DNA of 64,000 nucleotides from assembly GCA_029945445.1 (NCBI GenBank), contig JAQSCO010000055.1, positions 1-64,000 of the forward strand, read 5' to 3'. Both the position numbers and the translations under genes were made by a program. Below, in pieces: positions 41,512-59,600 of the stretch. The notes under the pieces are model-generated. The model was not told where the DNA came from, ran no database searches, and worked only from the letters and a program-made list of their open reading frames with translations. Source of the DNA: Lacunisphaera sp. GTDB lineage: Bacteria; Verrucomicrobiota; Verrucomicrobiia; Opitutales; Opitutaceae. Position 1 is the stretch's first letter. Every line of letters begins with the position of its first letter.

Positions 41512-41593
41512 TTTGTGGGGGGGGTGCCCTTACCCCGCGGGTTATCGCGTGCGCTGCCCAGGCCTCGCGGGGTGAGGGCACCCCGCCCACAAA
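41512..41593. repeat. Inverted pair of GCGGGGTG REP hairpins (BIME-like)
   Basis: The left copy (41512-41541) begins TTTGTGG and contains GGGGTG-CCCT-TACCCC. The right copy (41563-41593) is its near-exact reverse complement, ending CCCACAAA, with stem GCGGGGTG/CACCCCGC. They are separated by 21 bases between the dehydrogenase and lpxB. They are the same family as the hairpins flanking the transposase at 49050 and inside dnaE. Confidence 0.8.
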
Positions 41594-42844: not shown

Positions 42845-45874
<3,030 letters not shown>

Positions 45875-45946
45875 CCGGCCGGCCCAACCTGACGTTAGGT
45901 GGAGAAAAAAGTCGCCTCGGCGTGCCCGCCGAAACAGATATTCCCG

Positions 45947-49003
<3,057 letters not shown>

Positions 49004-49011
49004 ACGAAAGA

Positions 49012-49045
49012 TTTGTTGGAGGCGGGGTGCCCTCACCCCGCAGGG
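49012..49045 (+). repeat. REP hairpin upstream of the RAYT gene
   Basis: TTTGTTGGAG precedes the stem GCGGGGTG-CCCT-CACCCCGC. The copy at 49504-49530 is its inverse. GGAG just before the stem occupies the place of the conserved REP tetranucleotide. It begins nine bases after the kinase stop and ends four bases before the transposase ATG. Confidence 0.82.
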
Positions 49046-49049
49046 CATC

Positions 49050-49514
49050 ATGCATCTTCCGCATCTACCGTCGTTCAGCAAACAGCCGCTACTCTTCATC
49101 ACCACTTGCACGGCTGGCCGGCACCTTCTGCTCGCAACCGCAAGCTCTCACGATATTCTGAAGGCAATCTGGTCAAAATCCGCGGCTTTGGACGGATGGT
49201 ATGTGGGCCACTATTTGCTAATGCCCGATCACCTTCATCTTTTCGCTGTTCCGGGTCCCGAGGCGAAGCCCTTGGCCATCTGGATAAAAAGTTGGAAATC
49301 AATTTCGTCCCGCCAGCTGGCTATAACCAGAGCCATTACTCCACCGGTCTGGCAAGGGGACTACTTCGATCACTTTGTGCGCTCGCGGGCAGCCTATCGC
49401 TTGAAATGGACTTATGTTCAGCAAAACCCAGTTAGGCAGGGGCTTTGCGTGGAAAGTTCCGATTGGTTGTTTCAGGGCACCTTGCACGATATCGATTGCC
49501 GTCTTGCGGGGTGA
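49050..49514 (+). mobile_element. REP-associated tyrosine transposase (RAYT, Y1/IS200-like)
   Basis: A 154-residue HUH-type Y1 transposase domain. The metal histidines are in MPDHLHLF (His61, His63) and the catalytic tyrosine is probably Tyr122 in TYVQQNP, as in RAYTs, which mobilise or maintain REP sequences. It lies between the convergent ends of a kinase gene and hemA, bracketed by inverted REP hairpins. Its stop codon TGA is supplied by the downstream hairpin (GCGGGGTGA), so the last residues are encoded by the REP itself. Composition is lower in G+C than the neighbours, consistent with transfer. It appears intact. Confidence 0.88.
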
Positions 49515-49530
49515 GGGCACCCCGCCTCCA
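49504..49530 (-). repeat. REP hairpin downstream of the RAYT gene
   Basis: Reverse complement of the upstream copy: stem GCGGGGTG/CACCCCGC with loop AGGG, then CCTCC. It contains the TGA stop of the transposase gene and ends nine bases before the hemA stop codon. Confidence 0.82.
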
Positions 49531-49538
49531 TCCCCCGT

Positions 49539-50588
49539 TCACGAACCCGCCGGCCGGTTCAGCGACTGCGCCACCTGCGGCCACAGGGCCGCGGTGCGCT
49601 CCGCGAGGATGGCGCGGCAGCGCGCGACCTCGGCCTCGCGCTGGGCGAGGTTCGTCTCGGCGATCTTGGCGAGGTCGTCGAGGTTGTAGACAAAGACGTT
49701 GGCCAGCTCGGCGGCGGCGGGGTCGACGTCGCGTGGCAGCGCCAGGTCGATCAGGAACAGTGGCCGCGCGGCGCGGCGCTTCATGGCCGCGGCCACCAGG
49801 TCCCGCGTCAGGACGAAGCCGGGCGCGGAGGTCGAGCTCGCGACGATGTCGGCGGCGGCGAGCAGCTCGGGGAGGTCGGCGAGGCTGGCGGCCCAGCCGC
49901 CGGTCTGCGCGGCGGCGGCCTCGGCGTTGGAGAGAGTGCGGCTGGCGACGGTGATCGAGGCGGCGCCGCGACTCTGGAAGGCCTGGGCGGTCTTCAGCCC
50001 GATGTCGCCGGCGCCGACGACCAGGACCTTGGTCGTCGTGAGCTCGCCGAAGATGCGCCCGGCGAGGTCCACCGCCACGGTGGCGATGCTGATCTGGCCG
50101 GCGCCGATGCCGGTGGTGGTGCGGATGTGCTTCGCCGCCTGGAAGGTTTTCTGGAAAACGCGGTTGAGCACCGGGCCGGTCGACTTCTGCGCGAGCGCCG
50201 CGTCGTAGGCCTGCTTCACCTGGCCGAGGATCTCGGTCTCGCCCACGATCTGCGAGTCGAGGCCGGAGGCGACGGCGAAGAGGTGCGCGATGGCCTCATG
50301 GTTATGCCGCGTGAAGCCGGCGCCGTTGAGCTCCGCGGGGGTGCAGCCGGTCGTCTCGCAGAGCGCGGCGTGCAGGGCGTCGATCGTCCCGGGCGTGAGC
50401 GCCACGCCGTAGAGCTCGACGCGGTTGCAGGTGTTGAGGAGCGTGAACTCCCGCACGTCGGGCATCGCCCGCAGCTTCGCGGACAGGGCGGCGGCGCGGG
50501 TGTCATCCAAGGACAACTTCTCCCGCACGGCGAGGGACGCCGTGCGGTGGGTGGCGCCGAGCAGGAAGAGGACGGGCGTGGCGGCCAT
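49539..50588 (-). CDS. hemA: Glutamyl-tRNA reductase
   Basis: A 349-residue enzyme, slightly shorter than the common 410-430 because the dimerisation tail is reduced. Motifs: FLLGATHRTASLAVREKL, the catalytic Cys in LLNTCNRVELYGVA, GLDSQIVGETEILGQVKQAY, the NADPH-binding KVLVVGAGDIGLKTAQAF and LFLIDLALPRDVDP. It makes glutamate-1-semialdehyde, the first committed step of C5-pathway haem synthesis. It follows the HemX/CcsA-like gene by two bases, as in hemA-hemX operons of other bacteria. Confidence 0.95.
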   Translation of the reverse strand: MAATPVLFLLGATHRTASLAVREKLSLDDTRAAALSAKLRAMPDVREFTLLNTCNRVELYGVALTPGTIDALHAALCETTGCTPAELNGAGFTRHNHEAIAHLFAVASGLDSQIVGETEILGQVKQAYDAALAQKSTGPVLNRVFQKTFQAAKHIRTTTGIGAGQISIATVAVDLAGRIFGELTTTKVLVVGAGDIGLKTAQAFQSRGAASITVASRTLSNAEAAAAQTGGWAASLADLPELLAAADIVASSTSAPGFVLTRDLVAAAMKRRAARPLFLIDLALPRDVDPAAAELANVFVYNLDDLAKIAETNLAQREAEVARCRAILAERTAALWPQVAQSLNRPAGS

Positions 50589-56646: not shown

Positions 56647-59600
56647 TTAGCCGCGCTTGTTGCCCCAGCGCTTCACTTCCTTCAGTTCGACGCGGCGGGC
56701 CTCGATCTGCGTGCCGGCGACGGCGGGGTGCGAGCGCAGCTCCTGGAAGGCGACCGGCGTCACGCGCCAGTTCAGGCTGGCCGGCGCCTCGGCGATGGGG
56801 GCCACGCGGTTCTCGAACAGGAAGGCCAGTTCGACGCGGGTCTCGCCGCCGGAGGCGTTGATCGCGGTGCGGAGTTTTTGCAGGAAGTCGGGTAGTCCGG
56901 CGTGCGCCGGATCGAGCAGCCAGGTGACCTTGCGCACGTTCGCCGGCAGGTAACCGTCGAGCGGGTAGAGTTCCTTCACGTTGAGGCGCGCGCCGTCGTT
57001 GCCCTTCATCACGGTGCCGAGCACGACGACCGGCTGGTTCTCGCCGAGGCTCTTGCCGTAGGTCTCGTAGGCGTCGGCATACATGTTGACCGAGATCGTG
57101 GCTTGCTTGCTCGCGAGGTTGAAGAACGCCCAGGGGCGGTTGTCTTTTTTCGAGAGCTTCTTGTTGATGCCGCTCATGATGCCGGCGAGGCGGAACTCGA
57201 TGCGATCGCCCTCGAGCAAAACCGACGCCTCGGTGTGCGTGCACAGCGCCTCGGCGAGTCCGGCGTAGGCATTGAGCGGATGGCCGGAAACGTAGAAACC
57301 GAGCAGCTCTTTCTCGAACTGCAGGCGTTCGGCCGAGGTGAAGTCGGCCGCGGTGGTCGTGTGGACGGTGCTGCCGTTGCGGGGTGAGGGCACCCCGCCT
57401 CCATTTCGGGCGGGCGGCTCCTCGGCGAGCGCATCGAGGAAGGAGTGCTGGCCGGCGGCCTTGTCGCGGGCGTGGGCCGCCGCGCCGGCGATGGCGGAGT
57501 CGATGCTGTCGAAGAGCTGCTTGCGCGCGGCGCCGCTGAAGTCGAAGGCGCCCGTCTTCACGAGATGCTCGAGCACGCGCTTGTTGAGTGCGCGGGTGTC
57601 GACCCGCGTGGTGAAGTCGGCGAAGTCCTTGAACGGGCCGTTCGCCTCGCGTTCCTCGATGATCTTGACCGCGGCCTGCTCGCCCACGCCCTTGATGCCG
57701 GCGAGGCCGAAGCGGATGGCGTTGAACGTAGGGGCGTCGCTTGACGACGCCCGGGCGCCGTCAAGCGGCGCCCCTACAAGGCGGAACGCCACCGGAGTGA
57801 AATTAGTGCGCGACTCGTTCACGTCGGGACCGAGGACCTTGAGGCCCATCGCCTCGCACTCCGCGACGAAGTGCGCGACCTTTTCCGAGTTGCCGAGCTC
57901 GGAGGTGAGCATGGCGGCCATGAACTGGACCGGGTAGTTGGCCTTGAGGAAACCGGTCTGGTAACTGAGGACGGCGTAGGCGGCGGAGTGGGACTTGTTG
58001 AAGCCGTAGCCGGCGAATTTGTTGAGGATGTCGAAGATCGAGTTGGCCGTCTTGGCGTCGATCTGGTTCACCTTCGCGGCGCCCTCGACGAACTTCGCGC
58101 GCTCCTTCGCCATGGCATCGGCGTCCTTCTTGCCCATGGCGCGGCGCAGCATGTCGGCGCCGCCGAGCGTGTAGCCGGCGATGATCTTGGCGGCCTCCAT
58201 GACCTGCTCCTGGTAGACCATGACGCCGTAGGTCTCGCGGCAGACTTCCTCGAGGAGCTTGTGCGGGAACTGGACGGTGCTCGGGTCCTTTTTGCCGCGG
58301 ACGTAGTCGGGAATCCACTCCATCGGGCCGGGGCGGTAGAGGGCGATGAGCGCGACGATCTCGTCGATCGACGACAGGCCGATCTGGCGGCAGAGCGCCT
58401 GCATGCCGCCGGATTCCAGCTGGAACACGCCGGTGGTGCGGCCGGAGTTGAGCAGGGCGTAGGTCTTCGGGTCCTCGAAGCCGACCGTCTCGATGTCGAA
58501 CTTCGGGTCGGCGGTGCGATGGACGTTGTCGATGGCGTCGGCGATGACGGTGAGGGTTTTGAGGCCGAGGAAGTCCATCTTCAGCAGGCCGAGCTTGCCC
58601 ACCGCGTTCATGTCATACTGCACCGTGATGTCGCCCTCCTGCAGCGTGAGCGGGACGAACTCCTCCAGCGGCCGGTCGGTGATGATGATGCCGGCGGCGT
58701 GCTTGCCGGTGTTGCGCACCATGCCCTCGAGCACGAGGCCCTGGTCGATGATCTTTTTCGCGATCGGATTCTTCTCGTATTCGTTGCGGAGCTCGGCGGA
58801 TTTTTCGAGCGCGGTCTGGAGCTCGATGTTGAGCTCGTCGGGGATCATCTTGGCGAGGCGGTCGGCCTCGGCGTAGGGCAGGTCATGGACGCGCGAGACG
58901 TCGCGGATGACCATCTTGGCGCCGAGCGTGCCGTAGGTGATGATGTTGGCGACGCACGGCTCGCCGTATTTCTGGCGGACGTACGCGATGACCTCGCCGC
59001 GACGGCGCATGCAGAAGTCGATGTCGAAGTCCGGCGGCGACACGCGCTCGGGGTTGAGGAAGCGCTCGAAGAGCAGCTTGAAACGCAGCGGGTCGAGGTT
59101 GGTGATGCCGAGCAGGTAGGCGACGATGCAGCCGGCGCCCGAGCCGCGGCCCGGGCCGACGGGGATGCCCTGGCGCTTGGCCCAGTCGATGAAATCCCAG
59201 ACGACGAGGAAGTAGTCGACGAAACCGGTCTTCGCGATGATCGAGATTTCGTAGTCGAGCCGCTCAAGGAGGACCTTGGCCAGGGCCTGGTCCTTGGCCT
59301 TTTCCGGTTTCGCGTAATCGACGCCGTAGCGGTGCTTGAGGCCGACGATGCAGAGTTCCTTGAGGTAGCCGGTGCGATCGGTCTTCACCTCGGCGGGGAG
59401 CGGATACTTCGGGTAGCGCTCGGAGCCCTTGGGGAAGGGGATGGTGAGGTCGCACATCTCGGCGACGAGCTGGGTGTTGGCGACCGATTCGGGCACCTCG
59501 CTGAAGACGCGGCTCATTTCCTCGCGCGACTTGAGGTAGAATTGCGTGCCGGAGAACTTCATCCGGTTCTCCTCGGCGATCTTCGAGCCGGTCTGGATGC

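What the first reader, a model, noticed from the sequence alone, without database searches (positions are those of the whole stretch)
49012..49530. RAYT gene boxed by REP hairpins, one of which supplies its stop codon
The transposase starts four bases after one hairpin and terminates at TGA inside the inverted partner. The whole 519-base unit sits between convergent genes like an inserted cassette, suggesting that REP and RAYT move together and that the hairpin evolved a coding role.
Basis: partly seen in the sequence, partly recalled or inferred. Interest (0 to 1): 0.62.

Follow-up and report, generated by a model that had tools for sequence, protein, structure and literature searches.

The report
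Transposase gene flipping between REP hairpins
A small domesticated transposase gene is boxed by two mirror-image DNA hairpins, one of which holds its stop codon; comparison with related bacteria indicates that the box keeps its place on the chromosome for very long times but has turned round in place, with the joints at the hairpins.

Summary
A 154-aa RAYT (ATG 49050, TGA 49512-49514) lies between two REPs that form a perfect 26-bp inverted repeat, and its TGA is inside the right hairpin. The ATG follows the left hairpin by 8 nt, not 4. REP-RAYT-REP is the textbook REPtron. A 'coding role' is overstated: 3 of 5 congeneric orthologues end inside the REP; it recurs in a second RAYT lineage (2 of 2) with another REP.

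Comparison gave more. Of 103 hemA junctions examined, 7 hold a related RAYT cassette, in both orientations (3 against 4). DNA alignments put the inversion joints at the REPs. Sister RAYTs at a clpB/psd junction show the same; a third locus is likely, a fourth possible. So REPtrons can keep their place yet invert as a unit, which the searches and passages seen here do not report. The REP head is GGAG, not canonical GT[AG]G; one RAYT residue (109) predicted GG or GT heads in 29 of 32 further RAYTs with clear heads. How the flip happens (exchange at inverted REPs, or the RAYT itself) is unproven. New variant of a known kind.

The parts
49018..49041 (+). left REP: head GGAG 49018-49021, hairpin 49022-49041
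49050..49514 (+). RAYT gene, 154 aa; HLH motif residues 61-63 (49230-49238), tyrosine 122 (49413-49415)
   Evidence: NF047646 E 6.7e-21, Pfam Y1_Tnp E 2.2e-4, PDB 4er8 TnpAREP E 5e-6, invariant motifs in seven RAYTs
49506..49529 (-). right REP, same sequence inverted; hairpin 49506-49525
49512..49514 (+). TGA stop codon of the RAYT inside the right hairpin
49042..49049 (+). 8-nt spacer between left hairpin and ATG, holds AGGG (likely ribosome site)
   Evidence: ribosome site inferred
45899..49003 (+). CHASE-PAS hybrid histidine kinase, upstream neighbour (start codon not settled)
49539..50552 (-). hemA (glutamyl-tRNA reductase; name recalled), convergent neighbour; 337 codons plus stop, as used in the searches

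Best explanation
This is a REPtron: a domesticated Y1 (HUH) transposase of the RAYT/TnpAREP kind, bounded by two inverted copies of the REP hairpin that it is expected to recognise as single-stranded DNA. It has sat behind hemA probably since the common ancestor of the five congeneric species that carry it, is under purifying selection, and is probably expressed by read-through from whichever neighbour it follows. Because its ends are perfect inverted repeats, the whole 0.5-kb box can turn round in place by an exchange between the two REPs; it has done so here and at one to three other RAYT loci of the family. Most likely host recombination or replication template switching at the inverted REPs does this, with RAYT cleavage possibly starting it. 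The TGA in the right REP is a by-product of tight packing: the RAYT frame runs into the REP, whose inverted strand offers TGA in one frame, and the REP sequence is kept for recognition. Shown: anatomy, REP copy number, opposite orientations, joints at REPs, selection. Inferred: orthology of the five (clade support and matching branching), REP cleavage, expression, mechanism of the flip.
For: REP 35 times in the genome, reversed control 0. RAYT family matches; pN/pS 0.27 against the nearest relative. Five congeneric hemA-junction RAYTs form one clade (95/91, 95/89) and branch, unrooted, as HemA does. Same junction, both orientations. Window against G134: same-side flanks share only 38 and 25 bp (the REP); turned round they align over 424 bp (71%) and 606 bp (81%) running into the REPs; against G142 29 and 29 bp, and 419 bp (70%) and 607 bp (79%). 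Sister RAYTs L102/L125 at clpB/psd, 80% identical, opposite orientation, joints at the REPs. Controls with the same orientation (L118/L120, L005/L074, L075/L077) align on the same side, with nothing or only the REP when turned.
Against: Flips are seen between species, not within a strain. REP cleavage, expression and mechanism were not tested. The clpB/psd junction also holds a second, distant RAYT lineage, so repeated insertion at one place happens. All seven hemA-junction RAYTs were not one clade in the free trees (holding them together is not rejected, p-AU 0.34). Both Pfam and NCBIfam matches are just under their curated cut-offs. Most genomes are draft assemblies.
Confidence: 0.7

Rival explanations
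1. Independent insertions: related REPtrons entered the same junctions several times, in either orientation, because REPs and REPtrons prefer gene ends or existing REPs. The two orientations are then separate arrivals.
For: Two distant RAYT lineages (L084/L094 and L102/L108/L122/L125) lie at the same clpB/psd junction. REP-like elements of other kinds lie at hemA/kinase junctions without RAYT (G064, G048, G050). At plsC/trpS the RAYTs of both orientations are not one clade.
Against: L102 and L125 are sisters among 106 RAYTs (SH-aLRT 95) at one junction in one genus; the five congeneric hemA-junction RAYTs are one clade that branches as HemA does.
Confidence: 0.2
2. Programmed switch: the RAYT itself cuts at its two REPs and turns its own gene round, so that it is read from one or the other neighbour at different levels.
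For: TnpAREP cuts and rejoins REP DNA in vitro (PMC8266576, passages); joints lie at the REPs; in window and G142 the RAYT lies 46 and 34 nt behind a gene on its own strand in either orientation.
Against: The two REPs are recognised on opposite strands, and a single-strand enzyme does not simply join them crosswise (inference). Orientation is the same in G000 and G147, and in G142 and G134, over large divergence, so flips are rare. At clpB/psd one orientation sets the RAYT against both neighbours.
Confidence: 0.2
3. Selected stop: the REP-borne TGA is kept because it ties the end of translation to the hairpin (protects mRNA or the REP).
For: Stop inside the REP in two RAYT lineages with different REPs: L005, L074, L077 (same place) and L079, L080 (TGA in the loop).
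Against: 5 of 44 RAYTs with a downstream inverted repeat found; orthologues G142 and G143 stop at or before it. TGA lies in one of three frames, so once the frame reaches the REP chance is about one in three. No other gene at 30 REP copies of this genome clearly uses it.
Confidence: 0.1
4. Assembly error: short repeats made the assembler turn the box in some genomes.
For: Most of the genomes compared are drafts in many contigs.
Against: G134, with one of the two orientations, is a single contig; repeats of 23-28 bp are shorter than usual assembly k-mers (recalled); orientation follows the HemA tree within the genus.
Confidence: 0.04

Closest known systems
REPtron: RAYT flanked by inverted REPs (Nunvar 2010, PMC2817692; passages seen)
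   Same: RAYT single gene between two inverted REPs that are abundant in the genome; REP very close behind the stop codon
   Different: Stop inside the REP; GGAG head; opposite orientations at one locus, where that paper found no signs of mobility such as changes of chromosomal location
GTAG REPs of Opitutus terrae and others (Di Nocera 2013, PMC3733652; passages seen)
   Same: REPs in the same bacterial group; REP termini often supply a TAG stop codon to neighbouring genes
   Different: There TAG comes from the GTAG head; here TGA from the stem or loop of the inverted strand; 'GGAG' not found in its main text
TnpAREP classes (PMC6006769; passages seen)
   Same: HUH and tyrosine motifs, REPtron layout
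   Different: Its REP search required a GTAG or GTGG head, which would miss GGAG and GGGG heads; 'inversion' and 'GGAG' not found in its main text
E. coli TnpAREP (PDB 4er8; PMC8266576 passages seen)
   Same: Best match in the PDB; Tyr122 aligns with Tyr115
   Different: Distant sequence; GTAG-headed REPs with bulged stems; several REPs around the gene

Membership tests
RAYT / TnpAREP (Y1 HUH transposase) | HUH motif and catalytic tyrosine in the Y1 fold | tested here: met
   HLH 61-63 and Tyr122, aligned with Tyr115 of 4er8 and invariant in seven RAYTs; family scores just under curated cut-offs
RAYT / TnpAREP (Y1 HUH transposase) | Gene bounded by two inverted REPs | tested here: met
   26-bp perfect inverted repeat
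RAYT / TnpAREP (Y1 HUH transposase) | The flanking REP is abundant in the genome | tested here: met
   35 copies with up to 3 mismatches, reversed control 0
RAYT / TnpAREP (Y1 HUH transposase) | Binds and cleaves its REP as single-stranded DNA | not testable with these tools
   Known for E. coli and two other systems (PMC8266576, passages)
Canonical REP | Head GT[AG]G at the foot of the hairpin | tested here: not met
   Head is GGAG on both sides; GTGG-headed copies of the same hairpin exist elsewhere in the genome. So: REPtron with a non-canonical head
Insertion sequence of the IS200/IS605 family | Several copies at different sites | tested here: not met
   Seven matches in the genome; next best listed is 37% identical with another REP

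The most novel reading that the evidence does not exclude
REPtrons are in-place invertible cassettes: the RAYT, or exchange at its REPs, turns its own gene round at a fixed chromosomal site, so that it is read from one neighbour or the other; and in a large group the guide head changed from GT[AG]G to GG[AG]G together with one RAYT residue, so that guide choice of a single-strand transposase can be read from one position.
Probability: 0.25. Interest if true: 0.75.

Novelty: new variant of a known kind. Interest (0 to 1): 0.55.

Why it matters
RAYTs are described as vertically inherited genes that do not copy themselves, and REPtrons as units that do not appear to transpose (PMC8049555, PMC6006769, passages); how REPs spread and why RAYTs are kept is open. 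In-place inversion with joints at the REPs is a footprint of exchange at both ends of the unit. It gives a simple PCR test (both orientations in one population) of whether a REPtron is active, with or without the RAYT. The GGAG heads and residue 109 give a direct test of how TnpAREP reads its guide.

Tried and rejected
Coding role of the REP as a general feature: rejected. Of 35 REP copies in this genome 30 were fetched as loci; 26 of the 30 carry TGAGGG on one strand, and only the RAYT clearly uses it as a stop; L031 has a 61-codon frame of unclear status, and the method (third-position G+C) can miss AT-rich genes. In G135, however, hemA itself stops at a TGA inside a single REP.

REP as an mRNA control hairpin: folding of the leader gave no significant excess stability (z -1.2); left open.

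Residue 105 (Tyr) as marker of GG heads: weaker than residue 109, since the distant GGAG-headed RAYTs C60 and L041 have Phe there. The residue-109 rule was noted before 40 further RAYTs were fetched. Of the 40: 29 as predicted, 3 against (L267, L285, L299), 2 mixed, 6 without a detected REP. It remains confounded with clade.

Clade of all seven hemA-junction RAYTs: not found by the free trees, not rejected (p-AU 0.34). Locus 3 (plsC/trpS): flanks are swapped but the RAYTs are not one clade, so not counted as proven. Locus 2: L103 matches the query only over residues 1-132 and its frame runs on (222 aa; no right REP found), so its RAYT is probably damaged and the case is weaker.

Faults of mine: one search scored inverted repeats that are not REPs (L083, L095, L098), took a wrong stop for L076 and passed over the nearer REP of L079; one search corrects the last two. 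In one search the L101 row is not a REP. In the survey of hemA junctions G074 (contig end) and G087 (overlooked) were left out of the ranked list.

Not used: structure prediction, fold search, PADLOC, PHROGs, phage, plasmid and E. coli collections, viral contigs.

Full report
What is there. Between a hybrid histidine kinase ending at 49003 (+) and hemA ending at 49539 (-) the window carries a 154-aa reading frame from ATG 49050 to TGA 49512-49514. On either side stands the same sequence, GGAG followed by a hairpin with an 8-bp stem and 4-nt loop, in inverted orientation: arms 49017-49042 and 49505-49530, 26 nt, without a mismatch. The stop codon lies inside the right hairpin. The protein is a relative of REP-associated tyrosine transposases (NF047646, E 6.7e-21, 74.7 bits against a cut-off of 80; Pfam Y1_Tnp, 21.8 against 23); its best match among solved structures is E. 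coli TnpAREP (4er8, E 5e-6). HLH (residues 61-63 here) and Tyr122 (aligned with Tyr115 of 4er8) fall in motifs shared by the seven RAYTs found at this junction (the middle residue of HUH varies). Against the nearest relative pN/pS is 0.27, so the gene is under purifying selection, although synonymous sites are nearly saturated.

The hairpin is a true REP. It occurs 35 times in the genome with up to 3 mismatches, against 0 for the reversed pattern, and several of the 30 copies printed form close inverted pairs. Two head types share the hairpin, GGAG and GTGG. Of 21 genomes of the genus, 15 hold the core hairpin with up to 2 mismatches, from 2 to 113 copies; the reversed control gave one hit each in two genomes.

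The stop codon. Of five congeneric RAYTs at this junction, those of G000, G147 and G134 end at the same TGA inside the REP, G142 ends with a TAG that shares its last base with the REP, and G143 stops 5 nt before it. In a second RAYT lineage (L079 of G149, L080 of G139) with a different REP, both genes end at a TGA in the REP loop. Of 65 RAYTs examined, 44 had a detected downstream inverted repeat: 5 stop wholly inside it, 2 overlap it by one base (in one, L105, the TAG is that of a GTAG head), and 37 stop 2-85 nt before it (at least one of the 44, L101, is not a REP). So the trait is real, recurrent and not conserved. It fits what was noted before: REPs often follow RAYT stop codons directly (PMC2817692, passages), and GTAG termini often supply TAG stops to neighbouring genes (PMC3733652, passages). 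I see no need for a coding role.

The place. I examined 103 hemA junctions: 21 of the genus, 80 others of the family taken in order of HemA similarity (G074 and G087 left out), and the two RAYT loci G229 and G080 that showed hemA beside them. In 44 of the 103 a kinase of this kind lies convergent to hemA (43 within 1.2 kb, G080 at 1.24 kb), and in 7 of those 44 a RAYT lies between. No RAYT was found in the other 96 stretches, 6 of which are shorter than 1 kb. In the genus, G133 has the junction with one REP and no RAYT, G139 a half REP, and G149, G140 and G145 none (G145's contig ends soon after); G135 has one REP whose TGA is the stop codon of hemA itself, with another neighbour.

The flip. 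In G000, G147 and G143 the RAYT faces hemA; in G134, G142, G229 and G080 it follows hemA. The five congeneric RAYTs are one clade (95/91, 95/89), and their unrooted branching agrees with that of HemA (it is unresolved). DNA shows the joints. Between the window and G134, flanks on the same side of the RAYT share only 38 and 25 bp (the REP), while turned round they align over 424 bp (71%) and 606 bp (81%), running into the REPs; with G142 the figures are 29 and 29 bp against 419 bp (70%) and 607 bp (79%). Pairs of equal orientation (L005/L074, L075/L077, L118/L120) behave the other way round. So the box has turned round in place within the genus at least once, if the five are orthologues.

Other loci. 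A comparison of neighbours among the fetched RAYTs found the same at a clpB/psd junction (gene names recalled; Pfam): L102 (G224) and L125 (G228), of one genus, have sister RAYTs (80% identical, SH-aLRT 95) in opposite orientation between genes 96% and 82% identical; turned round, DNA aligns over 538 bp (83%) through the REP on one side and 356 bp (81%) plus the REP on the other, while in RAYT sense it aligns only from the REPs inward. A third case is L082 and L090 against L103 (RAYT clade 97, one neighbour RodZ-like), weaker because L103 seems damaged. A fourth, at plsC/trpS (L083 against L088, L096, L099), has swapped flanks but RAYTs that are not one clade. At other shared loci orientation is kept: L107/L111/L130, L101/L110/L115/L119/L123/L127, L104/L113, L112/L129, L118/L120. 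The clpB/psd junction also holds a second RAYT lineage, L084/L094, so insertion at a hot spot is a serious rival in general, though weak for the sister pair.

How it may work. TnpAREP cuts single-stranded REP DNA at CT and rejoins it, the head acting as guide (PMC8266576, passages). Inverted REPs could turn the box by host recombination or by template switching at forks; that this happens at short inverted repeats is recalled, not looked up. I put host exchange first because the two REPs are recognised on opposite strands. In window and G142 either orientation sets the RAYT 46 or 34 nt behind a host gene on its own strand; over the fetched loci 46 of 61 RAYTs with a called upstream neighbour have it on the same strand (genes called by third-position G+C only). 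Read-through expression is inferred; Di Nocera and colleagues suggest the same (PMC3733652, passage).

The head. REPs of this RAYT and its nearer relatives have GG[AG]G heads, many others GT[AG]G. The residue aligned with Phe109 is F, Y, H or Q in 18 GG-headed rows, and L, V or I in 34 of 35 GT-headed rows, R in one (the rows are those whose head I read off). The rule was noted before 40 further RAYTs were fetched: 29 of 32 with clear heads agreed, 3 did not, 2 were mixed, 6 had no detected REP. Clade and residue are confounded. A published REP scan required GTAG or GTGG (PMC6006769, passages); 'GGAG' as a word start is absent from the main texts of PMC6006769 and PMC3733652 (figures are not held), and a search for it with REP and tyrosine transposase found no paper.

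Known and new. The unit is a REPtron, described since 2010. In-place inversion of REPtrons was not found in the held library by searches, nor in passages seen of PMC2817692, PMC3733652, PMC6006769, PMC8266576, PMC3686654, PMC3116915 and PMC8049555. PMC3686654 does tell of RAYTs at novel chromosomal sites, explained by duplication or horizontal gain, so RAYTs are not wholly immobile in print. The 2017 paper on RAYT groups (recalled) is not held and may report more. Weak points: flips between species only, mostly draft genomes, nothing tested at the bench.

Noticed in passing
window 57379-57402 (-): A GGAG REP lies in frame inside a 1212-aa frame that reads as DNA polymerase III alpha (name recalled, not searched), giving GGGVPSPR; REPs inside replication genes were noted before (PMC3733652, passages).
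   Followed up: partly
window 41519-41586: A GTGG-headed inverted REP pair with the same hairpin as the RAYT's REPs; no RAYT with GTGG REPs was seen in this genome, so these copies may be orphans.
   Followed up: no
L164 (G000:C60), 1870-2425: A second REPtron of the same genome: a RAYT about 37% identical, with GGAG heads on another hairpin and a TGA 4 nt before its right REP.
   Followed up: partly
L142 / L169 (G135), hemA 3' end: hemA itself ends at a TGA inside a single REP, without RAYT.
   Followed up: no
L084, L094, L102, L108, L122, L125: One clpB/psd junction holds two distant RAYT lineages with different REP heads in different species, which suggests preferred sites for REPtrons.
   Followed up: partly
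window 44000-49003: Two hybrid kinases of one kind stand in tandem before the RAYT.
   Followed up: no
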